Source: Tiliqua scincoides (taxonomy: Eukaryota > Chordata > Lepidosauria > Squamata > Scincidae). Taken from it: a stretch of DNA of 64,000 nt. Positions 3,950 to 55,074 of the stretch are shown here, piece by piece. The position numbers and the translations under genes are program-made. Every line of letters starts with the position of its first letter. The first letter of the stretch is position 1. The notes below the pieces were generated by a model. The model did no database searches and was not told the origin of the DNA. It saw nothing but the letters and a program-made list of their open reading frames with translations. The DNA lies in NCBI RefSeq assembly GCF_035046505.1, contig NC_089830.1:23600284-23664283 (forward strand), written 5' to 3'.

Positions 3950-4330
3950 GGATAAGGAGACATTTTTCCCTACCCAGGGGTAATGAGTGGGAAAACAGTG
4001 GATTTTTGCAGCGTTCCACAGGACAAATCCTGCTATTTAAGAACTTAGAATTAAGGACTTGGTTCACTGCACAATAACTTCTCCTTCCGGAACATTCTCC
4101 TCCCCCAGTTCTGCGATGGATGAACCAGAGAAGGTTCTTAGCTGGGACTTTCTGATAGAGCTACTTTTATTTTGTTAGAGACTGGAGGCTCTTTCTAAGG
4201 GAGATTTGTCAGGAACGGGGAGGGAAAAGCACCCTGTGAAACAGGCAGCCAACTAACCAGATTGTCGGTTCAGAGGTTACACCCTTCAGCTCCCCATGCA
4301 AGCTGGCCCTGAGCAGAAGTATTTTCTAGG
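3950..4330 (+). promoter_or_regulatory. Diverged promoter and leader exon of the broken IRG
   Basis: Aligns to the promoter-leader block of the recent duplicons (20640-20996 and 22240-22287). It shares GTTCACTGCACA, the CATTCTCCT block, GCCAACTAACC/GACTG, GGTTCAGAGGTT and the end TTTTCTAG|GTAAGGAG, a good splice donor with the GT at 4330. Where the intact copies have the ISRE core TTTCGCTTTC this copy reads TTTTATTTTG, and where they have the GAS core TTCCATGAA it reads TTCCACAGG. This copy has therefore probably lost interferon control. A 3.5-kb intron would lead to the acceptor at 7797. Confidence 0.6.
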
Positions 4331-7822: not shown

Positions 7823-9310
7823 ATGGATAATCCTGCTATGAAACCAATGAGAGATTATTTTGATGGGATGAAGGCTGCTTTGGATCAAGCACTGCTACCG
7901 GAAGTGATAACCAAAAGCTATCAAAACATCAATTTATTTGAAAAGACCACCCTGGACATTGCCATCACAGGGGTGTCGGGCACCGGGAAGTCATCCCTTG
8001 TAAATGCCCTGCGAGGCCTGGATGACAATGATGATAAAAATAATGCAGCCAAGACTGACGTGATACAAGGGACATCACATCCCGAAATATATCCACATCC
8101 CTTATGGCCAAATGTCACCCTTTGGGTCCTACCAGGAATCGGGACCAAAGGCTTTCAAGCTGCAAGATATCTAAAGCAGGTACAATTTGACAAGTATGAT
8201 CTGTTCATCGTTCTTTCCTCCAGCCGTTTCACCGAGAATGATGCCAATTTGGCCCGTGAAATTCAGAAAAGGAAGAAGAAGTTTTACTTTGTGCATTCCA
8301 AAATAGATGTTGATCTGGGGAATGAGCGTCGGATAAAAGACTTCAGGCAGGAGACAACACTCAAGAAGATTAGGAACAATTGCTATATACGCACATTTGC
8401 AAAAGCCCAGGGTCTTTCTCATCTCCAGATGGGATTTGGACAAGTATGATTTTCCCTTCCTGGAAATGACCTTAGAAGAGGAATTGGATTTATCTGAAAA
8501 CACCCTTGACATTGCCATCGTAGGGGTGACGGGAGCTGGTAAGTCATCCCTTGTGAATGCCATGCGAGGCCTGGATGATGATGATTATAAAAATAATGCA
8601 GCCAAGACTGTTTTCCAAAATAGATATAGATCTGAGGAATGAATGCCTGAGAAGAGATTTCAGGGTGGAGAGAACCCTTGAGAAGGAATGATGGCTATCA
8701 ACAATTGAAACAGCCAAGAGTTTTTCTCATCTCCAGATGGAATTTGGACAATTATGACTTTCCCCTCCTGCAAATGACCTTAGAGGAGGAGGTGGATAGT
8801 CTCAAGAGTCAAGTCTTAATTCTGGCAATACCACCTGTCTCCAGAGAAATTCTGGAGCAGAAAAAGAAAACCATGAAAAAGGTTATATTGGTGCAGTCCC
8901 TGTTGTCTTTTGATCTTGAGGCCATTCAATTTCCAGGTCTCTCTTTTCCTTTTGACATTGCCATCCTGGTGAGAATCTTGAGGCCTTTCTGCAGGGTTTT
9001 CAGCTTGAATGAAGTCTCCCTCAGTAGAGTTGTAAAACTGGTGGGCAAACACGAAGATGTTCTGAGTTCTGCTATCCACAAGTCCCCCATGGCCAGTGAG
9101 TTCACCCCAGAATTTGTATTCCGTCTTTTGTGAAAGTCATTGGTCTATTCAACACTGATGGGGCTGGAGTTTGCTCTTGATTTTGTGCCTGGACTGAGCT
9201 CTATAACTGGTGGAGGACTTTCATTCACAACCACATTCATGATGCTGGAGGATTTTTTGAATGATGTCATAGAAGACACCAAGAGCATCCTTGCTAAAGT
9301 TTCTGAGTGA
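7823..9310 (+). pseudogene. Broken double-G-domain immunity-related GTPase (IRG)
   Basis: Homologous along its whole length to the three intact 579-residue IRGs. A splice acceptor (TTTCTTAG, exon from 7798) precedes ATGG at 7823, as in the intact genes. The first GTPase domain reads open to about 8390, with P-loop GVSGTGKS at about 7974 and an SKID G4 motif. A frameshift near 8390-8400 then moves PRVFLISRWDLDKYDFP into another frame. That frame runs directly into a second P-loop, GVTGAGKS, so the fused architecture was already present. After AAKT about 80 codons of the second domain, including its DLPG motif, are deleted. The helical domain reads from about 8690 in a further frame and is cut by a TGA at 9131-9133. 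Homology continues to the usual end LAKVSE. A working protein is excluded, though a truncated first-domain product cannot be ruled out. Confidence 0.92.
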
Positions 9311-14947: not shown

Positions 14948-16234
14948 ATGGGAATTGTTGCAACAAAAGCATTTATAAGAAATGAACTTGCTGAAATAAA
15001 GGCTGCTTCAGAAGGAAAATCTATCCAAGAAGTGGCAGACCAAGTTCAACAAGAGTTGAATTTATTAGAAAACACCACACTCAACATCGCCATCACAGGG
15101 GTGTCAGGTGCTGGGAAATCATCCCTGGTCAATGCCTTGAGGGGTGTGGCAGATGATGACGAGGGTGCGGCTCGGACTGGACTGTTAGAAACAACAGTGA
15201 ATCCAGCAAGATATCCACATCCCAAATTCCCCAACGTCGTAATATGGGATCTCCCAGGAATTGGGACACCTGAGTTCAAATCGAATGAATACCTAAAGAG
15301 GGTGAATTTTAGCCGGTACGATTTCTTCATCATCGTTTCCGGTGATCGCTTCACTCAACATGACACCAAACTGGCTGATGAAATTTGGAAAATGAAAATG
15401 AAGTTCTACTTTGTGCGCACCAAAATAGATACCGGTTTAGATTCAGAAAGAAGGAAACGGGGCTTTGATGAGAAAGCCACCCTTGAAATGATAAGGAATT
15501 ATTGTGGTGAAAATTTGAGGAAAGCAGGAGAATCTTCTCCAAAGGTTTTTCTGATATCCAGTTGGCACCCAGAGAAGTATGATTTCCCCCTCCTACAAGA
15601 AACCTTGATGAATGGCTTAGATGACCTCAAGAGAGAGGTATTAATGATGGCCCTGCCAACTTGTTCCAAAGAAGTCTCAGAGAGGAAAAAGGCTGCAATG
15701 GAGAGTCTCATATGGAAATTCGCTCTTAGGTCATGTGCTATTGGGGCCATTCCTGTCCCAGGTCTCTCTTTTGTTTGTGATGTTGTCATCCTGGTGCATG
15801 CAATGGAACGGTTCTGCAATGTCTTTGGCTTGGATGAAGTTTCCCTACAAAAGGTTGCGGATAGTGTTGGTCAGCCAGTCAGTGAGTTGAAGTCTGCTAT
15901 CAAAAAGTCCCCACAGGCTGGTGAGATCAAAGCAGAGTTTGTCATCGATCGCTTGAGCAGGATGGCACTGTGTGCATCAGCAAGAGCGGTAGAATCTGCT
16001 CTGGGTCTCATACCAGTGCTTGGCTCCCTCACTGGTGCGGGACTGTCTTTTGTCACCACATACTGGGTGCTGAAGAGCTTTCTGAATGATGTTATGGAAG
16101 ATGCTGAGAATGTTCGTGCTAAAGCTGTTGAATTGGGCAAAAAGAGTTCTAAGAAAATATCTGTACATCCACTTGGAAAGAGGTCCACCACATATAGATG
16201 CGCAGAAGACAAAAATATCAAAACTCAAGCTTAG
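14948..16234 (+). CDS. Single-domain immunity-related GTPase (IRG, GKS type)
   Basis: Encodes 428 residues, the usual IRG length. IRGs are interferon-inducible dynamin-like GTPases that bind and disrupt pathogen-containing vacuoles or act on organelle membranes. The G domain has P-loop GVSGAGKS (51-58), a switch Thr in ETTVNPARYPHP, DLPG (101-104) and TKID (158-161), so it is a GKS type. The helical domain includes GAIPVPGLSFVCDVVIL and LGSLTGAGLSFVTTYWVL. The tail is Lys-rich (KKSSKK). I chose the ATG at 14948, although the frame is open from 14897, because a splice acceptor (TGTTTTCAG, exon from 14932) lies between them. The context AACAATGG is good. The resulting start MGIVAT fits the N-myristoylation rule (Gly2, Thr6), as in mouse Irga6 and Irgb10. 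It is clearly diverged from the double-G genes next door. Orthology to a named mammalian IRG cannot be set from here. Confidence 0.93.
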   Translation: MGIVATKAFIRNELAEIKAASEGKSIQEVADQVQQELNLLENTTLNIAITGVSGAGKSSLVNALRGVADDDEGAARTGLLETTVNPARYPHPKFPNVVIWDLPGIGTPEFKSNEYLKRVNFSRYDFFIIVSGDRFTQHDTKLADEIWKMKMKFYFVRTKIDTGLDSERRKRGFDEKATLEMIRNYCGENLRKAGESSPKVFLISSWHPEKYDFPLLQETLMNGLDDLKREVLMMALPTCSKEVSERKKAAMESLIWKFALRSCAIGAIPVPGLSFVCDVVILVHAMERFCNVFGLDEVSLQKVADSVGQPVSELKSAIKKSPQAGEIKAEFVIDRLSRMALCASARAVESALGLIPVLGSLTGAGLSFVTTYWVLKSFLNDVMEDAENVRAKAVELGKKSSKKISVHPLGKRSTTYRCAEDKNIKTQA

Positions 16235-20649: not shown

Positions 20650-20840
20650 TTTCACTTCTCAGAGAGGAAAAACAGTAGTTTTTTTCCAGCAAATTTCCAT
20701 GAAGATGAATCCTGGAGCCTGACCAGTTCACTGCACAGTCCTTGCTCCTTTGGAAACGTTCTCCTGGCCCAGGTCTGTGATGGGCGGACCGGAGAAGGGT
20801 GTTGGCTGGCACTTCGTGGAATAAAGTTACTTTCGCTTTC
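20650..20840 (-). promoter_or_regulatory. Candidate interferon-response promoter, copy A (IRF core, GAS, ISRE)
   Basis: Three motifs lie within 190 bases: TTTCACTT at 20650-20657 (minus AAGTGAAA, the IRF core AANNGAAA); TTCCATGAA at 20695-20703 (GAS core TTCNNNGAA, bound by STAT1); and TTTCGCTTTC at 20831-20840 (minus GAAAGCGAAA, a perfect ISRE GAAANNGAAA). Mouse IRG promoters are known to use ISRE and GAS. A leader-exon donor follows at 20996. The motifs are read directly; function is inferred. Confidence 0.65.
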
Positions 20841-20842
20841 AC

Positions 20843-20996
20843 CAGAGACTGAAGGCATTCTTGGTTACCAGGAAAGACAAGGGAGATTAGTCAGAAGTGA
20901 GGAAGCAAACACAGGCTTTCGAACAGGCGGCCAACTGACGGTTCAGAGGTTGCCCCTTCAGCTCCTCAGAGAAGCCCCTTCCCCTTCCCCATAAAG
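20843..20996 (+). other. Candidate non-coding leader exon, IRG copy A
   Basis: Sequence between the ISRE and a strong donor, ATAAAG|GTAAGC (GT at 20997). An alternative donor, TTTCTAG|GTAAGA (GT at 22288), aligns to the single donor of the older copy at 4330. So an insertion of about 1.2 kb has split the ancestral leader region and either donor could be used. The acceptor is TTCCTTAG at 23121. The transcription start is not determined. Confidence 0.45.
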
Positions 20997-21388
20997 GTAA
21001 GCCACTCTTGCTTGATATCTTCCTTCTCATGCTCCTTCTTTCCTGCAGGCCACTGGCTGCTTGTGTGATTCTTGCACAGATGAGATTTTTTCATCAATGA
21101 TACCCGTCAGAGCACAGGAGGAGCTGTGGCAGGGTGGAGGGAGGCTTTAACACTTCTGCCACCATCCTGAGCCAGATGACCCCCAGGAAGGGAAGCCCAC
21201 CTAGGTACTATTCAGCATTAGACCTTCCCTCCATTGCAGCACAATCCTAGTCCAGACCAGGCATTTGCACCGCTGATTTTTAAGAAGACAAAACCAAGCA
21301 GAAAAGGGACAAACTGCACAGGGGAAATGGGGGAGGAAAACAGTGGAGCAAGTGATGGCTAAGAGGGGTTATGGGCCCCTTCCCTTCT

Positions 21389-21665
21389 CATAAGAACAGC
21401 CCTGCTGGATCAGGCCACAGGCCCATGTGGTCCAGCTTCCTGTATCTCACAGCGGCCCACCAAATGCCCCAGGGAGCACACCAGATAACAAGAGACCTGC
21501 AAGGCCTCCTGGGAATTGTAGTTAAGAACATAAGAACAGCCCCACTGGATCAGGCCAGAGGCCCATCTAGTCCAGCTTCCTGTATCTCACAGCGGCCCAC
21601 CAAATGCCCCAGGGAGCACACAAGACAACAACAGATCTGCATCCTGGTGCCCTCCTTTGCATCTG
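21389..21665 (-). repeat. Dimer of CR1-tail repeat (copy A)
   Basis: Two head-to-tail copies of TAAGAACAGCCC...GGATCAGGCC...AGCACAC joined by CCTGCAAGGCCTCCTGGGAATTGTAGT, exactly the monomer and linker of the 14-unit array at 45073-46981. An inverted single copy lies at 22352-22432. The same dimer is at 30351-30627 and 38563-38839. Confidence 0.85.
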
Positions 21666-22888: not shown

Positions 22889-23146
22889 GGGGAGAGGAGC
22901 AGGGATAGGATTCTGGTGCATGCACCCCTCCCACCCCCCTTTCACCTCCCACCCATCCCATCCCTGCCCAGAAACACCCCATTCCTCCCACCCCCACCCC
23001 ATGCCAGTCATACCTGTGTTCCTTGCTTCTCTCTGCATAAAATGCCTTGAAATACATGATGCAATAGCAACCGCAGCCTGTAAGTCAACAAGCACTATAT
23101 TCCTTTCTTTTCCTTCCTTAGATCAAGTGAAGGAACACAAACGGCC

Positions 23147-24886
23147 ATGGATGATCTCAACATGGAACCATTTGTAACAGATGATTTTGATGAGATGAAG
23201 GCTGCTTTGGATCAAGCAGAACTGCCAGAAGTGATAGCTCAAGCCCGTAAAAAGTTTGATTTATTTGAAAAGACCACTCTGGACATCGCCATCACAGGGG
23301 TGACGGGAGCCGGGAAGTCGTCCCTCGTAAATGGCATGCGAGGCCTGGATGATGATGATAATGAAAATAATGCAGCCAAGACGGATGTGGTGGAAGGAAC
23401 CAAGCAGCCAGAAAGATATCCACATCCTTTCTTGCCAAACATCACAATGTGGGACCTACCAGGAATAGGGACAGAAAACTTTCAAGCTGCCAGATATCTA
23501 AAGCAGGTAAATTTTGACAAGTATGATTTTTTCATCATCGTTTCCGCCACCCGTTTCACTGAGAATGATGCCAGATTGGCTCGTGAAATTCAGAAAAGGA
23601 AAAAGAAGTTTTATTTTGTGCGTTCCAAAATAGATGTTGATCTGGAGAATGACAAGCGGAAAAGAGATTTCAGGGAAGAGAAGACCCTCATGAAGATAAG
23701 GAATGACTGCTATCAACATTTGGAACAGCCCAGGGTTTTTCTCATCTCCAGATGGAATTTGGACAAGTACGACTTTCCCCTCTTGCAAATGACCTTGGAG
23801 ACGGAGTTGAATGTACCTGGAAAGACCACCCTTCACATTGCCATCACAGGGATGTCAGGTACTGGTAAATCGTCCCTTGTAAACGCCATGAGAGGTCTGG
23901 ATGATGGTGATGATAAAGCAGCCAAGACTGATGCGTTTGTAGGATCAACAGATTCAGAAGGATATGTGCACCCCTTATTTCCAAACGTCACAATTTGGGA
24001 CCTACCGGGAATAGGGACATCAGTATTTCAAGTATCAAACTATGTAAAACAAGTGTATTTTGACAAGTATGACTTGTTCATCATTGTTTCCTCAATGCGT
24101 TTCTCTGAGTATGATGCCAACTTGGTCCATGAAATTCAGAAGAGGAAGAAGAAGTTTTACTTTGTGCGTTCCAAAATAGATCTTGATCTGGAAAATGAGA
24201 GCCGGAAAAAAGATTTCAAGGAGGAGAAAACGCTCGAGAAGATAAAGAATGATTGCTATCAACGTTTGACAAAATCAGATCAGCTTCCTCCAAGGGTTTT
24301 TCTCATCTCCAGATGGCATTTGGACAGGTATGACTTCCCCCGCCTGCAAATGACCTTAGAAGAGGAGCTGGATGATCTCAAGAGTCAAGTGTTAATTCTG
24401 GCCATGCCGGCTTTCTCCAGAGAAATTCTGGAAAAGAAAAAGAAAGCCATGAAAAAGGTTATATGGATGCAAGCCGTGTTGTCTGCTGCTCTTGGGGCCA
24501 TTCCAGTTCCAGGTCTCTCTTTTCCTTGTGACATTGCCATCTTGGTAGGAACTTTGAGGCTTTTCTGTAATGTTTTTGGCTTGGATAATGCTGCCATCGG
24601 TAAACTTGCAAATCGGGTTGGCAAAAATGAAGCCGTTTTGAGGTCCGCTATTAAAAAAACCCCCATGGCTAGTGAGATCACCCCACAATTTGTAGCCCAT
24701 CTGTTGCAAAAGTCAGCACTCTGTGCAACGCTGATGGGGCTGGAGTTAGTTCTTGATTTTGTGCCTGTAGTGGGCTCTCTAACTGGTGGAGGCCTTTCAT
24801 TTGCCACCACGTTCTACATGCTGAGGGGTTTTTTGAACGATGCTGAAGAAGATGCCAAGAATGTTCTTGCTAAGGTTTCTGAGTGA
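23147..24886 (+). CDS. Double-GTPase-domain immunity-related GTPase, copy A
   Basis: Encodes 579 residues; a normal IRG has about 400-430. Order: short N-terminal helices (1-44); G domain 1 (about 45-218) with P-loop GVTGAGKS (51-58), T85, DLPG (103-106) and SKID (160-163); G domain 2 (about 228-407) with P-loop GMSGTGKS (235-242), DLPG (285-288) and SKID (342-345); then one helical domain (408-579) with GAIPVPGLSFPCDIAIL and VVGSLTGGGLSFATTFYML. G1 passes into G2 at LETELNVPGKTTLHIAITG, so the first unit's helical domain and the second unit's N-helices are missing. In G2 the residue aligned with T85 is S267, a possible change at the G2/switch threonine. Start: acceptor TTCCTTAG, exon from 23122, Kozak GCCATGG. 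Expected role is interferon-induced, membrane-directed cell-autonomous defence; that is inferred from the family. Differs from copy C only by Asn5. Confidence 0.95.
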   Translation: MDDLNMEPFVTDDFDEMKAALDQAELPEVIAQARKKFDLFEKTTLDIAITGVTGAGKSSLVNGMRGLDDDDNENNAAKTDVVEGTKQPERYPHPFLPNITMWDLPGIGTENFQAARYLKQVNFDKYDFFIIVSATRFTENDARLAREIQKRKKKFYFVRSKIDVDLENDKRKRDFREEKTLMKIRNDCYQHLEQPRVFLISRWNLDKYDFPLLQMTLETELNVPGKTTLHIAITGMSGTGKSSLVNAMRGLDDGDDKAAKTDAFVGSTDSEGYVHPLFPNVTIWDLPGIGTSVFQVSNYVKQVYFDKYDLFIIVSSMRFSEYDANLVHEIQKRKKKFYFVRSKIDLDLENESRKKDFKEEKTLEKIKNDCYQRLTKSDQLPPRVFLISRWHLDRYDFPRLQMTLEEELDDLKSQVLILAMPAFSREILEKKKKAMKKVIWMQAVLSAALGAIPVPGLSFPCDIAILVGTLRLFCNVFGLDNAAIGKLANRVGKNEAVLRSAIKKTPMASEITPQFVAHLLQKSALCATLMGLELVLDFVPVVGSLTGGGLSFATTFYMLRGFLNDAEEDAKNVLAKVSE

Positions 24887-27076: not shown

Positions 27077-29148
27077 GTGCTTTCGTTGGTGCAAGCCCAA
27101 GTGGACCTAGGAAGGGAGATGGCATATTGGTAGCATCGCATTTCTGTCCCACATCTTCTTCTTACTACTTGGCAATGCTTGGGGAAGTTCCTTGTTCTGA
27201 TCCTCACCAGGGCCTGGAAGCTTGACCATCATTCAGCAGCTCAGCATGAAGCAGCCAGGATACCTACTGACCATGTGATCTTGTAGATCACTTTGTGGAT
27301 CTCATTTAGGACCAAATGATACAGCAAAATGGAGGGTGCTTTCGTTGGTGCAAGCCCAAGTGGACCTAGGAAGGGAGATGGCATATTGGTAGCATCGCAT
27401 TTCTGTCCCACATCTTCTTCTTACTACTTGGCAATGCTTGGGGAAGTTCCTTGTTCTGATCCTCACCAGGGCCTGGAAGCTTGACCATCATTCAGCAGCT
27501 CAGCATGAAGCAGCCAGGATACCTACTGACCATGTGATCTTGTAGATCACTTTGTGGATCTCATTTAGGACCAAATGATACAGCAAAATGGAGGGTGCTT
27601 TCATTGGTGCAAGCCCAAGTGGACCTAGGAAGGGAGATGGCATATTGGTAGCATCGCATTTCTGTCCCACATCTTCTTCTTACTACTTGGCAATGCTTGG
27701 GGAAGTTCCTTGTTCTGATCCTCACCAGGGCCTGGAAGCTTGACCATCATTCAGCAGCTCAGCATGAAGCAGCCAGGATACCTACTGACCATGTGATCTT
27801 GTAGATCACTTTGTGGATCTCATTTAGGACCAAATGATACAGCAAAATGGAGGGTGCTTTCGTTGGTGCAAGCCCAAGTGGACCTAGGAAGGGAGATGGC
27901 ATATTGGTAGCATCGCATTTCTGTCCCACATCTTCTTCTTACTACTTGGCAATGCTTGGGGAAGTTCCTTGTTCTGATCCTCACCAGGGCCTGGAAGCTT
28001 GACCATCATTCAGCAGCTCAGCATGAAGCAGCCAGGATACCTACTGACCATGTGATCTTGTAGATCACTTTGTGGATCTCATTTAGGACCAAATGATACA
28101 GCAAAATGGAGGGTGCTTTCGTTGGTGCAAGCCCAAGTGGACCTAGGAAGGGAGATGGCATATTGGTAGCATCGCATTTCTGTCCCACATCTTCTTCTTA
28201 CTACTTGGCAATGCTTGGGGAAGTTCCTTGTTCTGATCCTCACCAGGGCCTGGAAGCTTGACCATCATTCAGCAGCTCAGCATGAAGCAGCCAGGATACC
28301 TACTGACCATGTGATCTTGTAGATCACTTTGTGGATCTCATTTAGGACCAAATGATACAGCAAAATGGAGGGTGCTTTCGTTGGTGCAAGCCCAAGTGGA
28401 CCTAGGAAGGGAGATGGCATATTGGTAGCATCGCATTTCTGTCCCACATCTTCTTCTTACTACTTGGCAATGCTTGGGGAAGTTCCTTGTTCTGATCCTC
28501 ACCAGGGCCTGGAAGCTTGACCATCATTCAGCAGCTCAGCATGAAGCAGCCAGGATACCTACTGACCATGTGATCTTGTAGATCACTTTGTGGATCTCAT
28601 TTAGGACCAAATGATACAGCAAAATGGAGGGTGCTTTCGTTGGTGCAAGCCCAAGTGGACCTAGGAAGGGAGATGGCATATTGGTAGCATCGCATTTCTG
28701 TCCCACATCTTCTTCTTACTACTTGGCAATGCTTGGGGAAGTTCCTTGTTCTGATCCTCACCAGGGCCTGGAAGCTTGACCATCATTCAGCAGCTCAGCA
28801 TGAAGCAGCCAGGATACCTACTGACCATGTGATCTTGTAGATCACTTTGTGGATCTCATTTAGGACCAAATGATACAGCAAAATGGAGGGTGCTTTCGTT
28901 GGTGCAACCCCAAGTGGACCTAGGAAGGGAGATGGCATATTGGTAGCATCGCATTTCTGTCCCACATCTTCTTCTTACTACTTGGCAATGCTTGGGGAAG
29001 TTCCTTGTTCTGATCCTCACCAGGGCCTGGAAGCTTGACCATCATTCAGCAGCTCAGCATGAAGCAGCCAGGATACCTACTGACCATGTGATCTTGTAGA
29101 TCACTTTGTGGATCTCATTTAGGACCAAATGATACAGCAAAATGGAGG
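27077..29148 (+). repeat. 259-bp tandem array, 8 units, between duplicons A and B
   Basis: Unit starts GTGCTTTCGTTGG at 27077, 27336, 27595, 27854, 28113, 28372, 28631 and 28890, a constant period of 259. Units are almost identical. Variants are CATTGG in the third and GCAACCCC in the eighth. In each unit the first ~62 bases are the end of a duplicon (to GGTAGCATCG) and the rest is the start of a duplicon (CATTTCTGTCCC to AAATGGAGG). Confidence 0.96.
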
Positions 29149-29611
29149 GGGGGTCCCTTTTCCTCTGGGCAGGTTGGCAGGAACAGGAGCTTCAAGGGCT
29201 CCTGCGCTCCAGATTTCTGCTGAAATGTCTGGGAACATTGTCTCCAGTGCAAGGGGAAATTGGGCACAGTTGTGTTTATAAGAACCTGGTATCTTTCATT
29301 AAAAGGACAAGACAGACAAAAGGAATAGGAAGACTGCTGCTTCTGTTTGCTCTTCATATACAAAAACTTACTAGAGCCCTCCTGACCTCTTCCATTCTTT
29401 GCAAGTCACCTCTGTTTTCCTGGCTTCCTTGTCTTCCCTCTTTCTCTCTTCCATCTTATATTATCTGGGTAAAAAATTCTGGAGTGAGAGGATGTGGACA
29501 GGGGAGGGCCTACTTATTCAATAAAAAGTAGCTGGGAAAAACCCTCGCACCACCGGCTTGACAACAGCTGATGTCCTTGTGATCTTTATTTGCAGCAACC
29601 AACATGTGACT

Positions 29612-29802
29612 TTTCACTTCTCAGAGAGGAAAAACAGTAGTTTTTTTCCAGCAAATTTCCATGAAGATGAATCCTGGAGCCTGACCAGTTCACTGCACAG
29701 TCCTTGCTCCTTTGGAAACGTTCTCCTGGCCCAGGTCTGTGATGGGCGGACCGGAGAAGGGTGTTGGCTGGCACTTCGTGGAATAAAGTTACTTTCGCTT
29801 TC
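29612..29802 (-). promoter_or_regulatory. Candidate interferon-response promoter, copy B
   Basis: Same three motifs as copy A: IRF core TTTCACTT (29612-29619), GAS TTCCATGAA (29657-29665), ISRE TTTCGCTTTC (29793-29802). Leader donor ATAAAG|GTAAGC with GT at 29959. Confidence 0.65.
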
Positions 29803-31633
29803 ACCAGAGACTGAAGGCATTCTTGGTTACCAGGAAAGACAAGGGAGATTAGTCAGAAGTGAGGAAGCAAACACAGGCTTTCGAACAGGCGCCCAACTGA
29901 CGGTTCAGAGGTTGCCCCTTCAGCTCCTCAGAGAAGCCCCTTCCCCTTCCCCATAAAGGTAAGCCACTCTTGCTTGATATCTTCCTTCTCATGCTCCTTC
30001 TTTCCTGCAGGCCACTGGCTGCTTGTGTGATTCTTGCACAGATGAGATTTTTTCATCAATGATACCCGTCAGAGCACAGGAGGAGCTGTGGCAGGGTGGA
30101 GGGAGGCTTTAACACTTCTGCCACCATCCTGAGCCAGATGACCCCCAGGAAGGGAAGCCCACCTAGGTACTATTCAGCATTAGACCTTCCCTCCATTGCA
30201 GCACAATCCTAGTCCAGACCAGGCATTTGCACCGCTGATTTTTAAGAAGACAAAACCAAGCAGAAAAGGGACAAACTGCACAGGGGAAATGGGGGAGGAA
30301 AACAGTGGAGCAAGTGATGGCTAAGAGGGGTTATGGGCCCCTTCCCTTCTCATAAGAACAGCCCTGCTGGATCAGGCCACAGGCCCATGTGGTCCAGCTT
30401 CCTGTATCTCACAGCGGCCCACCAAATGCCCCAGGGAGCACACCAGATAACAAGAGACCTGCAAGGCCTCCTGGGAATTGTAGTTAAGAACATAAGAACA
30501 GCCCCACTGGATCAGGCCAGAGGCCCATCTAGTCCAGCTTCCTGTATCTCACAGCGGCCCACCAAATGCCCCAGGGAGCACACAAGACAACAACAGATCT
30601 GCATCCTGGTGCCCTCCTTTGCATCTGGCATTCTGACATAGCCCAATTCAGTGTGAACTTACATGCATTGGAGCAACCTCCAGATAGCCCTTGAGCTGTG
30701 CTCTGCTCCAAAAAGATTTCTGGGAGAAGGGGGGTTATTCTGTCACAGCCTGCAACCCCTTAAGAAGTTGTTGTTTTGTGCTTGCCACTGAAAAGCAAGG
30801 CGCACATTTGAGTGACAGTCTTCCCCAGTCACTTGTGAGGAGAGAGAACCAGAGACCAGTTGCATTGTTTACCATCCCTGCTTAAATCAGAAATGAACAG
30901 GGAGGAGTAAGTAGCAGTGTTTCAACGTCTGAGCCCTATGCAGGACAAGATGAAGATGAGACTATGACTTTGAACATCTATTCCCAGACATGCTTTTGAG
31001 ACATGCATGAGTATCACATGCAATGGGGGAAATCTATTGCATGGGCTGGGACTGTGTGCAGCGGCCAATGCCGAGACTCGGTGGAACGGCATAGAAGGTG
31101 GAGGGGGACAAGGCTGAAGGTGCCACCATAGAAAGCTTTCATTCTGGGGACAGTAATGAAATAACGGGGAGGAAGCAACAATCAAAGTGTAGCGTTTTCA
31201 ATCCCTCACACAAACTGGCACTAAGCATAAGTAGTTTCTAGGTAAGAAGAGGGAGAAAGGGAGAAAGAGATGCAGGGAGGTGGCAGTGAGTTCTTGTGCT
31301 CAATGAAGCATCTGGTGGGCTGCTGTGAGATGCAAGAAGCTGGACTAGATGGGTTCTGGGCCTGATCCAGCAGGGCTCATCTTACGTAAAATTCTGACCA
31401 AGGAAAGGGAGTCCATGAACTTTTGGCCCAATGCTCTTGTCTGCATACTATTCTGTTTCAAACGGCCCTACCCCAACTTACCCACCCACCACGAATGCAG
31501 TTGGGCCAATGAAGGGTGTGCTGGGGTGGGCAGACACAGAGGCCTCCTCAAGGAAAAAAAACATTTGTTCCTCAGTGGGTCTCTTCAGATCAGTGCCAGT
31601 CATTTTTCCAAGGAAAGTAAGGGAGTCAGGTGA

Positions 31634-32124: not shown

Positions 32125-33864
32125 ATGGATGATCTCGACATGGAACCATTTGTAACAGATGATTTTGACGCAATGAAGGCTGCTTTGGATCAAGCAGAAC
32201 TGCCAGAAGTGATAGCTCAAGCCCGTAAAAAGTTTGATTTATTTGAAAAGACCACTCTGGACATCGCCATCACAGGGGTGACGGGAGCCGGGAAGTCGTC
32301 CCTCGTAAATGGCATGCGAGGCCTGGATGATGATGATAACGAAAATAATGCAGCCAAGACGGATGTGGTGGAAGGAACCAAGCAGCCAGAAAGATATCCA
32401 CATCCTTTCTTGCCAAACATCACAATGTGGGACCTACCAGGAATAGGGACAGAAAACTTTCAAGCTGCCAGATATCTAAAGCAGGTAAATTTTGACAAGT
32501 ATGATTTTTTCATCATCGTTTCCGCCACCCGTTTCACTGAGAATGATGCCAGATTGGCTCGTGAAATTCAGAAAAGGAAAAAGAAGTTTTATTTTGTGCG
32601 TTCCAAAATAGATGTTGATCTGGAGAATGACAAGCGGAAAAGAGATTTCAGGGAAGAGAAGACCCTCATGAAGATAAGGAATGACTGCTATCAACATTTG
32701 GAACAGCCCAGGGTTTTTCTCATCTCCAGATGGAATTTGGACAAGTACGACTTTCCCCTCTTGCAAATGACCTTGGAGACGGAGTTGAATGTACCTGGAA
32801 AGACCACCCTTCACATTGCCATCACAGGGATGTCAGGTACTGGTAAATCGTCCCTTGTAAACGCCATGAGAGGTCTGGATGATGGTGATGATAAAGCAGC
32901 CAAGACTGATGCGTTTGTAGGATCAACAGATTCAGAAGGATATGTGCACCCCTTATTTCCAAACGTCACAATTTGGGACCTACCGGGAATAGGGACATCA
33001 GTATTTCAAGTATCAAACTATGTAAAACAAGTGTATTTTGACAAGTATGACTTGTTCATCATTGTTTCCTCAATGCGTTTCTCTGAGTATGATGCCAACT
33101 TGGTCCATGAAATTCAGAAGAGGAAGAAGAAGTTTTACTTTGTGCGTTCCAAAATAGATCTTGATCTGGAAAATGAGAGCCGGAAAAAAGATTTCAAGGA
33201 GGAGAAAACGCTCGAGAAGATAAAGAATGATTGCTATCAACGTTTGACAAAATCAGATCAGCTTCCTCCAAGGGTTTTTCTCATCTCCAGATGGCATTTG
33301 GACAGGTATGACTTCCCCCGCCTGCAAATGACCTTAGAAGAGGAGCTGGATGATCTCAAGAGTCAAGTGTTAATTCTGGCCATGCCGGCTTTCTCCAGAG
33401 AAATTCTGGAAAAGAAAAAGAAAGCCATGAAAAAGGTTATATGGATGCAAGCCGTGTTGTCTGCTGCTCTTGGGGCCATTCCAGTTCCAGGTCTCTCTTT
33501 TCCTTGTGACATTGCCATCTTGGTGGGAACTTTGAGGCTTTTCTGTAATGTTTTTGGCTTGGATAATGCTGCCATCGGTAAACTTGCAAATCGGGTTGGC
33601 AAAAATGAAGCCGTTTTGAGGTCCGCTATTAAAAAAACCCCCATGGCTAGTGAGATCACCCCACAATTTGTAGCCCATCTGTTGCAGAAGTCAGCACTCT
33701 GTGCAACGCTGATGGGGCTGGAGTTAGTTCTTGATTTTGTGCCTGTAGTGGGCTCTCTAACTGGTGGAGGCCTTTCATTTGCCACCACGTTCTACATGCT
33801 GAGGGGTTTTTTGAACGATGCTGAAGAAGATGCCAAGAATGTTCTTGCTAAGGTTTCTGAGTGA
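32125..33864 (+). CDS. Double-GTPase-domain immunity-related GTPase, copy B
   Basis: 579 residues, same architecture as copy A, with both P-loops, both DLPG and both SKID motifs intact. Differences from copy C are Ala16 for Glu16 plus a few silent changes; from copy A also Asp5 for Asn5. Codons 15-16 read GACGCA where A and C read GATGAG, three changes within four bases in an otherwise near-identical gene. Acceptor TTCCTTAG with exon from 32101. The intron just upstream carries a TTTATATATACAC stretch shared with C but not A. Expected expression and role as for copy A. Confidence 0.95.
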   Translation: MDDLDMEPFVTDDFDAMKAALDQAELPEVIAQARKKFDLFEKTTLDIAITGVTGAGKSSLVNGMRGLDDDDNENNAAKTDVVEGTKQPERYPHPFLPNITMWDLPGIGTENFQAARYLKQVNFDKYDFFIIVSATRFTENDARLAREIQKRKKKFYFVRSKIDVDLENDKRKRDFREEKTLMKIRNDCYQHLEQPRVFLISRWNLDKYDFPLLQMTLETELNVPGKTTLHIAITGMSGTGKSSLVNAMRGLDDGDDKAAKTDAFVGSTDSEGYVHPLFPNVTIWDLPGIGTSVFQVSNYVKQVYFDKYDLFIIVSSMRFSEYDANLVHEIQKRKKKFYFVRSKIDLDLENESRKKDFKEEKTLEKIKNDCYQRLTKSDQLPPRVFLISRWHLDRYDFPRLQMTLEEELDDLKSQVLILAMPAFSREILEKKKKAMKKVIWMQAVLSAALGAIPVPGLSFPCDIAILVGTLRLFCNVFGLDNAAIGKLANRVGKNEAVLRSAIKKTPMASEITPQFVAHLLQKSALCATLMGLELVLDFVPVVGSLTGGGLSFATTFYMLRGFLNDAEEDAKNVLAKVSE

Positions 33865-36065: not shown

Positions 36066-37360
36066 GTGCTTTCGTTGGTGCAAGCCCAAGTGGACCTAGG
36101 AAGGGAGATGGCATATTGGTAGCATCGCATTTCTGTCCCACATCTTCTTCTTACTACTTGGCAATGCTTGGGGAAGTTCCTTGTTCTGATCCTCACCAGG
36201 GCCTGGAAGCTTGACCATCATTCAGCAGCTCAGCATGAAGCAGCCAGGATACCTACTGACCATGTGATCTTGTAGATCACTTTGTGGATCTCATTTAGGA
36301 CCAAATGATACAGCAAAATGGAGGGTGCTTTCGTTGGTGCAACCCCAAGTGGACCTAGGAAGGGAGATGGCATATTGGTAGCATCGCATTTCTGTCCCAC
36401 ATCTTCTTCTTACTACTTGGCAATGCTTGGGGAAGTTCCTTGTTCTGATCCTCACCAGGGCCTGGAAGCTTGACCATCATTCAGCAGCTCAGCATGAAGC
36501 AGCCAGGATACCTACTGACCATGTGATCTTGTAGATCACTTTGTGGATCTCATTTAGGACCAAATGATACAGCAAAATGGAGGGTGCTTTCGTTGGTGCA
36601 AGCCCAAGTGGACCTAGGAAGGGAGATGGCATATTGGTAGCATCGCATTTCTGTCCCACATCTTCTTCTTACTACTTGGCAATGCTTGGGGAAGTTCCTT
36701 GTTCTGATCCTCACCAGGGCCTGGAAGCTTGACCATCATTCAGCAGCTCAGCATGAAGCAGCCAGGATACCTACTGACCATGTGATCTTGTAGATCACTT
36801 TGTGGATCTCATTTAGGACCAAATGATACAGCAAAATGGAGGGTGCTTTCGTTGGTGCAACCCCAAGTGGACCTAGGAAGGGAGATGGCATATTGGTAGC
36901 ATCGCATTTCTGTCCCACATCTTCTTCTTACTACTTGGCAATGCTTGGGGAAGTTCCTTGTTCTGATCCTCACCAGGGCCTGGAAGCTTGACCATCATTC
37001 AGCAGCTCAGCATGAAGCAGCCAGGATACCTACTGACCATGTGATCTTGTAGATCACTTTGTGGATCTCATTTAGGACCAAATGATACAGCAAAATGGAG
37101 GGTGCTTTCGTTGGTGCAACCCCAAGTGGACCTAGGAAGGGAGATGGCATATTGGTAGCATCGCATTTCTGTCCCACATCTTCTTCTTACTACTTGGCAA
37201 TGCTTGGGGAAGTTCCTTGTTCTGATCCTCACCAGGGCCTGGAAGCTTGACCATCATTCAGCAGCTCAGCATGAAGCAGCCAGGATACCTACTGACCATG
37301 TGATCTTGTAGATCACTTTGTGGATCTCATTTAGGACCAAATGATACAGCAAAATGGAGG
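36066..37360 (+). repeat. 259-bp tandem array, 5 units, between duplicons B and C
   Basis: Unit starts at 36066, 36325, 36584, 36843 and 37102, period 259. Units 2, 4 and 5 carry the GCAACCCC variant that is rare in the first array (only its last unit). The two arrays have therefore been homogenised partly independently. Confidence 0.96.
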
Positions 37361-37823
37361 GGGGGTCCCTTTTCCTCTGGGCAGGTTGGCAGGAACAGGA
37401 GCTTCAAGGGCTCCTGCGCTCCAGATTTCTGCTGAAATGTCTGGGAACATTGTCTCCAGTGCAAGGGGAAATTGGGCACAGTTGTGTTTATAAGAACCTG
37501 GTATCTTTCATTAAAAGGACAAGACAGACAAAAGGAATAGGAAGACTGCTGCTTCTGTTTGCTCTTCATATACAAAAACTTACTAGAGCCCTCCTGACCT
37601 CTTCCATTCTTTGCAAGTCACCTCTGTTTTCCTGGCTTCCTTGTCTTCCCTCTTTCTCTCTTCCATCTTATATTATCTGGGTAAAAAATTCTGGAGTGAG
37701 AGGATGTGGACAGGGGAGGGCCTACTTATTCAATAAAAAGTAGCTGGGAAAAACCCTCGCACCACCGGCTTGACAACAGCTGATGTCCTTGTGATCTTTA
37801 TTTGCAGCAACCAACATGTGACT

Positions 37824-38014
37824 TTTCACTTCTCAGAGAGGAAAAACAGTAGTTTTTTTCCAGCAAATTTCCATGAAGATGAATCCTGGAGCCTGACCAG
37901 TTCACTGCACAGTCCTTGCTCCTTTGGAAACGTTCTCCTGGCCCAGGTCTGTGATGGGCGGACCGGAGAAGGGTGTTGGCTGGCACTTCGTGGAATAAAG
38001 TTACTTTCGCTTTC
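37824..38014 (-). promoter_or_regulatory. Candidate interferon-response promoter, copy C
   Basis: IRF core TTTCACTT (37824-37831), GAS TTCCATGAA (37869-37877), ISRE TTTCGCTTTC (38005-38014). Leader donor ATAAAG|GTAAGC with GT at 38171. Confidence 0.65.
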
Positions 38015-39845
38015 ACCAGAGACTGAAGGCATTCTTGGTTACCAGGAAAGACAAGGGAGATTAGTCAGAAGTGAGGAAGCAAACACAGGCTTTCGAACAG
38101 GCGCCCAACTGACGGTTCAGAGGTTGCCCCTTCAGCTCCTCAGAGAAGCCCCTTCCCCTTCCCCATAAAGGTAAGCCACTCTTGCTTGATATCTTCCTTC
38201 TCATGCTCCTTCTTTCCTGCAGGCCACTGGCTGCTTGTGTGATTCTTGCACAGATGAGATTTTTTCATCAATGATACCCGTCAGAGCACAGGAGGAGCTG
38301 TGGCAGGGTGGAGGGAGGCTTTAACACTTCTGCCACCATCCTGAGCCAGATGACCCCCAGGAAGGGAAGCCCACCTAGGTACTATTCAGCATTAGACCTT
38401 CCCTCCATTGCAGCACAATCCTAGTCCAGACCAGGCATTTGCACCGCTGATTTTTAAGAAGACAAAACCAAGCAGAAAAGGGACAAACTGCACAGGGGAA
38501 ATGGGGGAGGAAAACAGTGGAGCAAGTGATGGCTAAGAGGGGTTATGGGCCCCTTCCCTTCTCATAAGAACAGCCCTGCTGGATCAGGCCACAGGCCCAT
38601 GTGGTCCAGCTTCCTGTATCTCACAGCGGCCCACCAAATGCCCCAGGGAGCACACCAGATAACAAGAGACCTGCAAGGCCTCCTGGGAATTGTAGTTAAG
38701 AACATAAGAACAGCCCCACTGGATCAGGCCAGAGGCCCATCTAGTCCAGCTTCCTGTATCTCACAGCGGCCCACCAAATGCCCCAGGGAGCACACAAGAC
38801 AACAACAGATCTGCATCCTGGTGCCCTCCTTTGCATCTGGCATTCTGACATAGCCCAATTCAGTGTGAACTTACATGCATTGGAGCAACCTCCAGATAGC
38901 CCTTGAGCTGTGCTCTGCTCCAAAAAGATTTCTGGGAGAAGGGGGGTTATTCTGTCACAGCCTGCAACCCCTTAAGAAGTTGTTGTTTTGTGCTTGCCAC
39001 TGAAAAGCAAGGCGCACATTTGAGTGACAGTCTTCCCCAGTCACTTGTGAGGAGAGAGAACCAGAGACCAGTTGCATTGTTTACCATCCCTGCTTAAATC
39101 AGAAATGAACAGGGAGGAGTAAGTAGCAGTGTTTCAACGTCTGAGCCCTATGCAGGACAAGATGAAGATGAGACTATGACTTTGAACATCTATTCCCAGA
39201 CATGCTTTTGAGACATGCATGAGTATCACATGCAATGGGGGAAATCTATTGCATGGGCTGGGACTGTGTGCAGCGGCCAATGCCGAGACTCGGTGGAACG
39301 GCATAGAAGGTGGAGGGGGACAAGGCTGAAGGTGCAACCATAGAAAGCTTTCATTCTGGGGACTGGAATGAAATAATGGGGAGGAAGCAACAATCAAAGT
39401 GTAGCGTTTTCAATCCCTCACACAAACTGGCACTAAGCATAAGTAGTTTCTAGGTAAGAAGAGGGAGAAAGGGAGAAAGAGATGCAGGGAGGTGGCAGTG
39501 AGTTCTTGTGCTCAATGAAGCATCTGGTGGGCTGCTGTGAGATGCAAGAAGCTGGACTAGATGGGTTCTGGGCCTGATCCAGCAGGGCTCATCTTACGTA
39601 AAATTCTGACCAAGGAAAGGGAGTCCATGAACTTTTGGCCCAATGCTCTTGTCTGCATACTATTCTGTTTCAAACGGCCCTACCCCAACTTACCCACCCA
39701 CCACGAATGCAGTTGGGCCAATGAAGGGTGTGCTGGGGTGGGCAGACACAGAGGCCTCCTCAAGGAAAAAAAACATTTGTTCCTCAGTGGGTCTCTTCAG
39801 ATCAGTGCCAGTCATTTTTCCAAGGAAAGTAAGGGAGTCAGGTGA

Positions 39846-40336: not shown

Positions 40337-42076
40337 ATGGATGATCTCGACATGGAACCATTTGTAACAGATGATTTTGATGAGATGAAGGCTGCTTTGG
40401 ATCAAGCAGAACTGCCAGAAGTGATAGCTCAAGCCCGTAAAAAGTTTGATTTATTTGAAAAGACCACTCTGGACATCGCCATCACAGGGGTGACGGGAGC
40501 CGGGAAGTCGTCCCTCGTAAATGGCATGCGAGGCCTGGATGATGATGATAACGAAAATAATGCAGCCAAGACGGATGTGGTGGAAGGAACCAAGCAGCCA
40601 GAAAGATATCCACATCCTTTCTTGCCAAACATCACAATGTGGGACCTACCAGGAATAGGGACAGAAAACTTTCAAGCTGCCAGATATCTAAAGCAGGTAA
40701 ATTTTGACAAGTATGATTTTTTCATCATCGTTTCCGCCACCCGTTTCACTGAGAATGATGCCAGATTGGCTCGTGAAATTCAGAAAAGGAAAAAGAAGTT
40801 TTATTTTGTGCGTTCCAAAATAGATGTTGATCTGGAGAATGACAAGCGGAAAAGAGATTTCAGGGAAGAGAAGACCCTCATGAAGATAAGGAATGACTGC
40901 TATCAACATTTGGAACAGCCCAGGGTTTTTCTCATCTCCAGATGGAATTTGGACAAGTACGACTTTCCCCTCTTGCAAATGACCTTGGAGACGGAGTTGA
41001 ATGTACCTGGAAAGACCACCCTTCACATTGCCATCACAGGGATGTCAGGTACTGGTAAATCGTCCCTTGTAAACGCCATGAGAGGTCTGGATGATGGTGA
41101 TGATAAAGCAGCCAAGACTGATGCGTTTGTAGGATCAACAGATTCAGAAGGATATGTGCACCCCTTATTTCCAAACGTCACAATTTGGGACCTACCGGGA
41201 ATAGGGACATCAGTATTTCAAGTATCAAACTATGTAAAACAAGTGTATTTTGACAAGTATGACTTGTTCATCATTGTTTCCTCAATGCGTTTCTCTGAGT
41301 ATGATGCCAACTTGGTCCATGAAATTCAGAAGAGGAAGAAGAAGTTTTACTTTGTGCGTTCCAAAATAGATCTTGATCTGGAAAATGAGAGCCGGAAAAA
41401 AGATTTCAAGGAGGAGAAAACGCTCGAGAAGATAAAGAATGATTGCTATCAACGTTTGACAAAATCAGATCAGCTTCCTCCAAGGGTTTTTCTCATCTCC
41501 AGATGGCATTTGGACAGGTATGACTTCCCCCGCCTGCAAATGACCTTAGAAGAGGAGCTGGATGATCTCAAGAGTCAAGTGTTAATTCTGGCCATGCCGG
41601 CTTTCTCCAGAGAAATTCTGGAAAAGAAAAAGAAAGCCATGAAAAAGGTTATATGGATGCAAGCCGTGTTGTCTGCTGCTCTTGGGGCCATTCCAGTTCC
41701 AGGTCTCTCTTTTCCTTGTGACATTGCCATCTTGGTGGGAACTTTGAGGCTTTTCTGTAATGTTTTTGGCTTGGATAATGCTGCCATCGGTAAACTTGCA
41801 AATCGGGTTGGCAAAAATGAAGCCGTTTTGAGGTCCGCTATTAAAAAAACCCCCATGGCTAGTGAGATCACCCCACAATTTGTAGCCCATCTGTTGCAGA
41901 AGTCAGCACTCTGTGCAACGCTGATGGGGCTGGAGTTAGTTCTTGATTTTGTACCTGTAGTGGGCTCTCTAACTGGTGGAGGCCTTTCATTTGCCACCAC
42001 GTTCTACATGCTGAGGGGTTTTTTGAACGATGCTGAAGAAGATGCCAAGAATGTTCTTGCTAAGGTTTCTGAGTGA
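40337..42076 (+). CDS. Double-GTPase-domain immunity-related GTPase, copy C
   Basis: 579 residues. Protein is identical to copy A except Asp5 for Asn5, and to copy B except Glu16 for Ala16. All GTP-binding motifs of both G domains are intact and the ORF is uninterrupted. By eye only about five base changes separate it from copy A over 1740 bases, so the copies are very young or kept alike by gene conversion. Acceptor TTCCTTAG with exon from 40312; start GCCATGG. It probably shares control with A and B through the repeated promoter block, giving a dosage effect. Confidence 0.95.
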   Translation: MDDLDMEPFVTDDFDEMKAALDQAELPEVIAQARKKFDLFEKTTLDIAITGVTGAGKSSLVNGMRGLDDDDNENNAAKTDVVEGTKQPERYPHPFLPNITMWDLPGIGTENFQAARYLKQVNFDKYDFFIIVSATRFTENDARLAREIQKRKKKFYFVRSKIDVDLENDKRKRDFREEKTLMKIRNDCYQHLEQPRVFLISRWNLDKYDFPLLQMTLETELNVPGKTTLHIAITGMSGTGKSSLVNAMRGLDDGDDKAAKTDAFVGSTDSEGYVHPLFPNVTIWDLPGIGTSVFQVSNYVKQVYFDKYDLFIIVSSMRFSEYDANLVHEIQKRKKKFYFVRSKIDLDLENESRKKDFKEEKTLEKIKNDCYQRLTKSDQLPPRVFLISRWHLDRYDFPRLQMTLEEELDDLKSQVLILAMPAFSREILEKKKKAMKKVIWMQAVLSAALGAIPVPGLSFPCDIAILVGTLRLFCNVFGLDNAAIGKLANRVGKNEAVLRSAIKKTPMASEITPQFVAHLLQKSALCATLMGLELVLDFVPVVGSLTGGGLSFATTFYMLRGFLNDAEEDAKNVLAKVSE

Positions 42077-45072: not shown

Positions 45073-46981
45073 GAACATAAGAACAGCCGCACTGGATCAG
45101 GCTATAGGCCCATCTAGTCCAGCTTCCTGTATCTCACAGCGGCCCACCAAATGCCCCAGGGAGCACACCAGATAACAAGAGACCTGCAAGGGCTCCTGGG
45201 AATTGTAGTTAAGAACATAAGAACAGCCCCACTGGATAAGGCCACAGGCCCATCTAGTTCAGCTTCCTGTATCTCACAGCGGCCCACCAAATGCCCCAGG
45301 GAGCACACCAGATAACAAGAGACCTGCAAGGCTTCCTGGGAATTGTAGTTAAGAACATAAGTACAGCCCCACTGGATCAGGCCACAGGCCCATCTAGTCC
45401 AGCTTCCTGTATCTCACAGCAGCCCACCAAATGCCCCAGGGAGCACACCAGATAACAAGAGACCTGCAAGGCTTCCTGGGAATTGTAGTTAAGAACATAA
45501 GAACAGCCCCTCAGGATCAGGCCACAGGCCCATCTAGTCCAGCTTCCTGTATCTCACAGCGGCCCACCAAATGCCCCAGGGAGCACACCAGATAACAAGA
45601 GACCTGCAAGGCCTCCTGGGAATTGTAGTTAAGAACATAAGAACAGCCCCCCTGGATCAGGCCACAGGCCCATCTAGTTCAGCTTCCTGTATCTCACAGC
45701 GGCCCACCAAATGCCCCAGGGAGCACACCAGATAACAAGAGACCTGCAAGGCTTCCTGGGAATTGTAGTTAAGAACATAAGAACAGCCCCTCAGGATCAG
45801 GCCACAGGCCCATCTAGTCCAGCTTCCTGTATCTCACAGCAGCCCACCAAATGCCCCAGGGAGCACACCAGATAACAAGAGACCTGCAAGGCCTCCTGGG
45901 AATTGTAGTTAAGAACATAAGAACAGCCCCCCTGGATCAGGCCACAGGCCCATCTAGTTCAGCTTCCTGTATCTCACAGCGGCCCACCAAATGCCCCAGG
46001 GAGCACACCAGATAACAAGAGACCTGCAAGGCTTCCTGGGAATTGTAGTTAAGAACATAAGAACAGCCCCTCAGGATCAGGCCACAGGCCCATCTAGTCC
46101 AGCTTCCTGTATCTCACAGCAGCCCACCAAATGCCCCAGGGAGCACACCAGATAACAAGAGACCTGCAAGGCCTCCTGGGAATTGTAGTTAAGAACATAA
46201 GAACAGCCCCCCTGGATCAGGCCACAGGCCCATCTAGTTCAGCTTCCTGTATCTCACAGCGGCCCACCAAATGCCCCAGGGAGCACACCAGATAACAAGA
46301 GACCTGCAAGGCCTCCTGGGAATTATAGTTAAGAACATAAGAACAGCCCCCCTGGATCAGGCCACAGGCCCATCTAGTTCAGCTTCCTGTATCTCACAGC
46401 GGCCCACCAAATGCCCCAGGGAGCACACCAGAAAACAAGAGACCTGCAAGGCCTCCTGGGAATTATAGTTAAGAACATAAGAACAGCCCCACTGGATCAG
46501 GCCACAGGCCCATCTAGTTCAGCTTCCTGTATCTCACAGCGGCCCACCAAATGCCCCAGGGAGCACACCAGATAACAAGAGACCTGCAAGGCCTCCTGGG
46601 AATTGTAGTTAAGAACATAAGAACAGCCCCCCTGGATCAGGCCACAGGCCCATCTAGTTCAGCTTCCTGTATCTCACAGCGGCCCACCAAATGCCCCAGG
46701 GAGCACACCAGAAAACAAGAGACCTGCAAGGCCTCCTGGGAATTATAGTTAAGAACATAAGAACAGCCCCACTGGATCAGGCCACAGGCCCATCTAGTTC
46801 AGCTTCCTGTATCTCACAGCGGCCCACCAAATGCCCCAGGGAGCACACCAGATAACAAGAGACCTGCAAGGTTTCCTGGGAATTGTAGTTAAGAACATAA
46901 GAACAGCCCCACTGGATCAGGCCATAGACCCATCTAGTCCAGCTTCCTGTATCTTACAGCGGCCCACCAAATGCCCCAGGG
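45073..46981 (-). repeat. 140-bp tandem array of CR1 tail, 14 units
   Basis: Units begin AAGAACATAAGAACAG at 45211 and then every 140 bases to 46891, plus a first unit at 45073. Each is a CR1 3' tail piece plus the linker CCTGCAAGG-CTCCTGGGAATTGTAGTT. Unit types alternate (CCTCAGGATC with TAGTCC against CCCTGGATC with TAGTTC; ACCAGATAAC against ACCAGAAAAC), giving a 280-bp higher-order repeat in the middle and right part. The dimer inside each IRG duplicon (21389-21665) shows the likely seed. Confidence 0.95.
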
Positions 46982-47144
46982 AAATGGGGCAAATGCCCTG
47001 GCTTCATCACCTCGTCTACATAACCTTTAAAGGCACAGGATATAATAAGAGGCATACTGAAGCCTCTTGAAAGGTCATGTTGCTATGAAGTCCATCCAGG
47101 AATTGGAACTGACTGGCAAGGAACCTGGAACAAGGGCAGGGTCG

Positions 47145-54874: not shown

Positions 54875-55074
54875 NNNNNNNNNNNNNNNNNNNNNNNNNN
54901 NNNNNNNNNNNNNNNNNNNNNNNNNNNNNNNNNNNNNNNNNNNNNNNNNNNNNNNNNNNNNNNNNNNNNNNNNNNNNNNNNNNNNNNNNNNNNNNNNNNN
55001 NNNNNNNNNNNNNNNNNNNNNNNNNNNNNNNNNNNNNNNNNNNNNNNNNNNNNNNNNNNNNNNNNNNNNNNNNN
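54875..55074. other. Assembly gap (200 N)
   Basis: Exactly 200 unknown bases, probably a placeholder length. Open frames reported across it have no meaning. Confidence 0.99.

What the first reader, a model, noticed from the sequence alone, without database searches (positions are those of the whole stretch)
23147..24886. IRG with two GTPase domains fused directly and only one helical domain
Seen: one 579-codon ORF with two full sets of G1, DLPG and SKID motifs and a single C-terminal helical domain. The first domain joins the second at LETELNVPGKTTLHIA with no helical region between. Known: IRGs act as GTP-dependent assemblies through G-domain contacts, and mouse tandem IRGs join two whole IRG units, each with its helical domain. 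Inference: this protein may form a built-in G-domain pair, which would be a different way of controlling assembly on pathogen membranes. I know of no described IRG with this layout.
Basis: partly seen in the sequence, partly recalled or inferred. Interest (0 to 1): 0.88.

Follow-up and report, generated by a model that had tools for sequence, protein, structure and literature searches.

The report
IRG defence GTPase with doubled G domain
A vertebrate genome, from an unknown but probably reptilian species, carries three intact copies of an immune-defence GTPase whose GTP-binding domain was duplicated inside the gene, giving a two-headed protein on one helical body in which the second head has lost its catalytic residue; an older, decayed relative 15 kb away has the same join, so the layout is real and old.

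Summary
The 579-codon ORF at 23147-24886 encodes N-terminal helices, two complete IRG G domains and one C-terminal helical domain. The domains are joined by about 7 residues (NVPGKTT). Intact, nearly identical copies lie at 32125-33864 and 40337-42076. A diverged (about 81% identical), broken paralogue at 7823-9310 carries the same G1-G2 join. The layout is therefore neither an assembly error nor a recent accident.

It arose by an in-frame internal duplication of about 552 bp within the single coding exon, not by fusing two IRG genes. G1 and G2 form one clade (100/99) apart from the neighbouring ordinary IRG and mouse IRGs. Both domains evolved under purifying selection (dN/dS 0.28; pN/pS 0.33 and 0.37).

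New here: G2 keeps the nucleotide-binding motifs but has Val where Irga6 has catalytic Glu106, and G1 keeps the Glu. Mutating Glu106 in Irga6 abolishes hydrolysis but can leave assembly intact. So I predict one hydrolysing head and one GTP-holding head.

The very short linker makes the proposed built-in head-to-head pair unlikely. A bivalent, outward-facing connector is more likely (inferred). I found no described IRG with this layout in the open-access literature searched. Species, expression and function are undetermined.

The parts
23147..24886 (+). two-G-domain IRG, copy 1, 579 codons, single coding exon
23147..23266 (+). N-terminal helices (residues 1-40; helices 11-23 and 26-42)
   Evidence: model secondary structure; alignment to single IRG
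23267..23812 (+). G1: GVTGAGKSS, DLPG, SKID; catalytic Glu83 (Irga6 Glu106) present
23807..23833 (+). G1-G2 join, EL-NVPGKTT, 7-residue linker
23822..24373 (+). G2: GMSGTGKSS, DLPG, SKID; Val265 in place of catalytic Glu106, Ser267 in place of Thr108
24374..24886 (+). C-terminal helical domain and stop codon
32125..33864 (+). copy 2 of the two-G IRG, intact (7 nt differences from copy 1)
40337..42076 (+). copy 3 of the two-G IRG, intact (5 nt differences from copy 1)
7823..9310 (+). diverged two-G IRG pseudogene with the same join (about 8462-8510); frameshift near 8385, internal loss in G2 near 8610, stop at 9131
14948..16234 (+). ordinary single-G IRG (428 aa, begins MGIVATK)
20829..20840 (-). 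GAAAGCGAAAGT, exact match to the IRF/ISRE core; also at 29791-29802 and 38003-38014
   Evidence: 7 matches in window, 1.0 expected; the array triples two of them
20997..21002 (+). candidate splice donor AAAG|GTAAGC of an untranslated first exon
   Evidence: inferred
23101..23121 (+). splice acceptor TCCTTTCTTTTCCTTCCTTAG, 25 nt before the ATG; same position and similar sequence in the pseudogene and the single IRG
4062..4296 (+). block upstream of the pseudogene, 68% identical to 20726-20968 (promoter/first-exon region of the intact gene); IRF site decayed

Best explanation
It is an IRG of the GKS (effector-like) type in which the G-domain segment, about 552 bp or codons 38-221, was duplicated in tandem and in frame inside the single coding exon. 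The protein is one ordinary IRG body (N-terminal helices, one G domain, C-terminal helical domain) carrying an extra G domain (shown by sequence). G1 should bind and hydrolyse GTP. G2 should bind GTP but not hydrolyse it, because the catalytic glutamate is Val (inferred from Irga6 mutants). Because the heads are tethered back to back by 7 residues, their nucleotide faces should point outward rather than at each other. Each molecule could then pair with two other IRG subunits at once and act as a cross-linker or long-lived nucleator of assemblies on a pathogen vacuole, with G2 as a GTP-held arm (inferred). An upstream IRF/ISRE site suggests interferon induction (inferred).
For: Layout. Shared join in a paralogue about 19% diverged. 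Internal origin: G1, G2 and pseudogene G1 form one clade, 100/99; dS is 0.58 for G1-G2, 0.44 for G1-pseudogene G1 and about 1.3 to the single IRG; GAT microhomology at the join. Constraint on both domains: dN/dS 0.28; pN/pS 0.33 and 0.37. Catalytic asymmetry: G1 Glu83, G2 Val265, with the Irga6 Glu106 mutant data in PMC3042988. Linker 222-228 and one IRG body over model residues 9-579, Z about 35, 3.6 A over about 350 residues. Promoter and splice signals.
Against: Bivalency, membrane action and interferon induction are untested. Gly103 of the Irga6 interface is Asp in both heads, so pairing may differ from Irga6. No transcript was examined.
Confidence: 0.4

Rival explanations
1. Built-in G-domain pair: G1 and G2 of one chain form the IRG head-to-head dimer in cis, giving pre-assembled or self-activating GTPase.
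For: Two intact nucleotide-binding G domains in one chain; IRG assembly uses the G interface (PMC4774019).
Against: The linker is 7 residues, at most about 25 A, between the poles opposite the nucleotides (from knowledge of the fold). The interface residue Gly103 is Asp in both heads and G2 lacks Glu106.
Confidence: 0.15
2. Decoy or regulator: the extra G domain is bait for pathogen factors or an inhibitor of other IRGs, as the N-terminal half of mouse Irgb2-b1 binds the Toxoplasma pseudokinase ROP5 and shields Irga6.
For: Two-G IRG polypeptides of mouse serve this role (PMC3810784, PMC6420625). One head is predicted not to hydrolyse. Copy number is amplified in a recent array.
Against: No divergent selection was seen: both G domains are constrained and the three copies barely differ. 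No pathogen partner is known.
Confidence: 0.25
3. Structural tolerance: the second G domain adds little, and the protein works as an ordinary IRG with a redundant head.
For: An IRG body superposes over the whole chain with one G domain left over (biased alignment); G2 has lost the catalytic Glu.
Against: G2 keeps its binding motifs and shows constraint similar to G1.
Confidence: 0.17
4. Assembly or annotation artefact.
For: Three near-identical copies in one array; copies 2 and 3 differ by only about 0.2%.
Against: The same join occurs in a separate paralogue about 19% diverged; the ORF is intact in three copies with distinct flanks and different 259-bp repeat numbers.
Confidence: 0.02

Closest known systems
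Irga6 (IIGP1), Irgb10, Irgb6 of mouse (single-G GKS IRGs)
   Same: Pfam IIGP, same G motifs, N- and C-terminal helical parts, coding region in one exon
   Different: One G domain; catalytic Glu106 present in that domain
Mouse tandem IRGs (Irgb2-b1 and others)
   Same: Two IRG G domains in one polypeptide
   Different: Two whole IRG units from two long exons joined by splicing (about 94 kDa), each with its own helical domain; here one exon, one helical domain, and an internal duplication
Zebrafish irgg-irgq1 tandem transcript
   Same: Two truncated IRG-type units, the second with doubtful GTPase function (PMC1297648)
   Different: Made from two adjacent genes, both truncated at the C terminus, the second a quasi-GTPase with altered nucleotide motifs; here the motifs are intact and the helical domain is present
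GIMAP8
   Same: Immune GTPase with several G domains in one chain (PMC4201521)
   Different: AIG1/septin-related family, three G domains, no IRG helical domain
EngA/Der
   Same: Two G domains directly in tandem followed by one C-terminal domain (PMC3466195)
   Different: Bacterial ribosome-assembly GTPase; unrelated C-terminal domain

Membership tests
IRG (IIGP) family | Match to Pfam IIGP PF05049 above the curated cut-off | tested here: met
   485.5 bits against a cut-off of 24
IRG (IIGP) family | G1, G3 and G4 nucleotide-binding motifs | tested here: met
   GxxxxGKS, DLPG, SKID in both G domains
IRG (IIGP) family | Composite helical domain from N- and C-terminal helices | tested here: met
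   Sequence match to the C-terminal domain, N-terminal helices, superposition on Irga6 with Z about 35
IRG (IIGP) family | One G domain per helical domain | tested here: not met
   Two G domains, one helical domain; filed as a variant of the family
IRG GKS subfamily | GKS P-loop and catalytic Glu106 | tested here: inconclusive
   GKS in both; Glu106 kept in G1, Val in G2
IRG (IIGP) family | Interferon induction | not testable with these tools
   IRF/ISRE-type site upstream of each copy is only suggestive
Mouse-type tandem IRG | Two complete IRG units, each with a helical domain, from two spliced exons | tested here: not met
   One uninterrupted exon and no helical region between the G domains
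Quasi-IRG (IRGQ) | Radically altered nucleotide-binding motifs | tested here: not met
   P-loop, DLPG and SKID intact in G2

The most novel reading that the evidence does not exclude
An IRG with one hydrolysing and one permanently GTP-held head on a single helical body, working as a bivalent node that branches or locks IRG coats on pathogen vacuoles: an assembly logic not described for IRGs or, as far as I know, for other dynamin-related immune GTPases.
Probability: 0.3. Interest if true: 0.8.

Novelty: new variant of a known kind. Interest (0 to 1): 0.62.

Why it matters
How IRG proteins assemble on pathogen membranes is still unsettled. A natural IRG with two unequal G domains on one helical body separates G-domain pairing from helical-domain assembly, and GTP binding from hydrolysis, so both can be tested in one molecule. 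It also suggests that IRG diversity outside mammals and fish includes domain layouts not seen in mouse.

Tried and rejected
Own-genome search: no genome is held for this window. Relatives of the vertebrate proteins in viral and genome collections: none found, nor in phage records; only distant bacterial IRG-like single-G GTPases were found, used as outgroup and for the model alignment. First structure prediction with a 7-row alignment was too poor to use (pLDDT 51). Rfam and tRNA scans of the window gave nothing. Pfam on eight other ORFs gave nothing. Assembly artefact and fusion of two different IRG genes were rejected: shared join in the pseudogene, G1 and G2 in one clade. Literature searches for reptile or two-G IRGs found no description, but the library holds only open-licence papers. 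Foldseek and VIA matches cannot show how G1 and G2 pack.

Full report
Observation. The window has a 579-codon ORF at 23147-24886. Pfam IIGP matches it at 485 bits in two stretches. Searching each half against the PDB matches mouse IRGs separately: residues 1-226 match the N-terminal helices and G domain of Irgb10, Irgb6 and Irga6, and the second half matches a G domain plus helical domain. Chance openness is about 1e-13.

Copies. The gene lies in a recent array of three units, 98.4-99.7% identical over about 7-8 kb. All three coding regions are intact and differ by 4-7 nucleotides. Between units lie arrays of a 259-bp repeat with 8 and 5 copies. Copies 2 and 3 differ by about 0.2%, so allelic duplication of one of them cannot be excluded, but this does not affect the finding.

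The decisive observation for reality. A diverged relative at 7823-9310 aligns without break across the join: 7781-8591 matches 23105-23917 at 81% identity. Its own join reads LEEELDLSENTLDIA. It is a pseudogene: the frame changes near 8385, part of G2 is missing near 8610, and a stop lies at 9131. The two-G layout therefore existed before these loci separated.

Origin. The pseudogene join equals the end of a G domain (GAGCTGGAT) run into the start of the G segment (TTTGATTTATTTGAA) with a GAT overlap. This is an in-frame tandem duplication of about 552 bp, codons 38-221. G1, G2 and pseudogene G1 form one clade with support 100/99, apart from the neighbouring single IRG and three mouse IRGs. 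dS is 0.58 between G1 and G2, 0.44 between G1 and pseudogene G1, 0.32 between the helical domains of fusion and pseudogene, and about 1.3 to the single IRG. The order is: split from the single IRG, internal duplication, locus duplication, decay of one locus and recent triplication of the other. I give no date, because the species and its rate are unknown.

Constraint. dN/dS between G1 and G2 is 0.28. Changes unique to G1 and to G2 have pN/pS of 0.33 and 0.37 over 146 codons. Both domains have been kept.

Catalytic asymmetry (new here). Mapped onto Irga6, both domains keep Lys82, Ser83, Thr102, Asp164, the G4 SKID motif, Arg159 and Asn191. Catalytic Glu106 is Glu83 in G1 but Val265 in G2, and Thr108 is Thr85 in G1 but Ser267 in G2. 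Gly103 is Asp in both. In Irga6, no Glu106 mutant could activate hydrolysis, though E106A, D, Q and N still oligomerised, and most interface mutants bound GTP normally (PMC3042988). In the Irga6 dimer Glu106 is moved into the active site by the partner's ribose (PMC4774019). I infer that G2 binds GTP, may pair, but does not hydrolyse. The pseudogene G1 has Gln at this site, but it is decayed.

Geometry. In the better model (pLDDT 72.5, pTM 0.56) the last helix of G1 ends at 221 and the first strand of G2 begins at 229. One canonical IRG superposes on model residues 9-579 with about 350 residues aligned, Z about 35 and 3.6 A, leaving one G domain as an addition. This superposition is partly expected from how single-G rows were split in the alignment and is weak evidence. 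From general knowledge of the fold, the start of strand 1 and the end of helix 5 lie opposite the nucleotide, while the IRG dimer forms across the nucleotides. A 7-residue link can span about 25 A, less than the expected separation in a head-to-head dimer. A cis pair is therefore unlikely; two outward faces are more likely. This is inference.

Gene structure and regulation. A splice acceptor just upstream of the ATG (23101-23121) is found at the same place in the fusion, the pseudogene and the single IRG, matching the IRG plan of untranslated leader exons plus one coding exon (PMC6420625). A block at 20726-20968 is conserved upstream of the pseudogene at 4062-4296 (68%). It contains an exact IRF/ISRE core, GAAAGCGAAAGT, at 20829-20840 and is followed by a candidate donor at 20997. 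The IRF site has decayed in the pseudogene. One such site within the 2.5 kb upstream has a chance probability of about 0.04 (from the expectation), so this is suggestive only. The fusion begins MDDL, without the glycine needed for N-myristoylation; the single IRG begins MGIVATK.

Comparison with known systems. Mouse tandem IRGs join two whole units by splicing (PMC3810784; PMC6420625). Zebrafish irgg-irgq1 joins a truncated IRG to a truncated quasi-IRG (PMC1297648). GIMAP8 and EngA show that several G domains in one chain occur in other GTPase families (PMC4201521; PMC3466195). None has this layout. The protein is an IRG by sequence and fold, with one defining feature (one G domain per helical domain) not met, so I file it as a new variant.

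Limits. No eukaryotic sequence database, transcript data or coordinates were available. Function is inferred.

Noticed in passing
window 27077-29149 and 36066-37361: Arrays of a 259-bp repeat, 8 and 5 copies, 99% identical, between the IRG units; they may have promoted the array's expansion.
   Followed up: no
window 45073-46982; also 21389-21641, 30351-30603, 38563-38815: 140-bp repeat (CATAAGAACAGCCCCACTGGATCAGGCC...), 13.6 copies next to the third unit and about 1.8 copies in each unit's putative intron.
   Followed up: no
window 14948-16234: Ordinary IRG beginning MGIVATK, which looks like an N-myristoylation signal that the two-G genes lack.
   Followed up: no
L001-L014, L071, L072: Bacterial IRG-like single-G GTPases with IRG-type helical domains on plasmids, genomes and two IMG/VR contigs; the Deinococcus plasmid has a second GTPase-domain gene directly downstream.
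   Followed up: partly
window 54875-55074: A 200-base run of N, an assembly gap, outside the IRG array.
   Followed up: no
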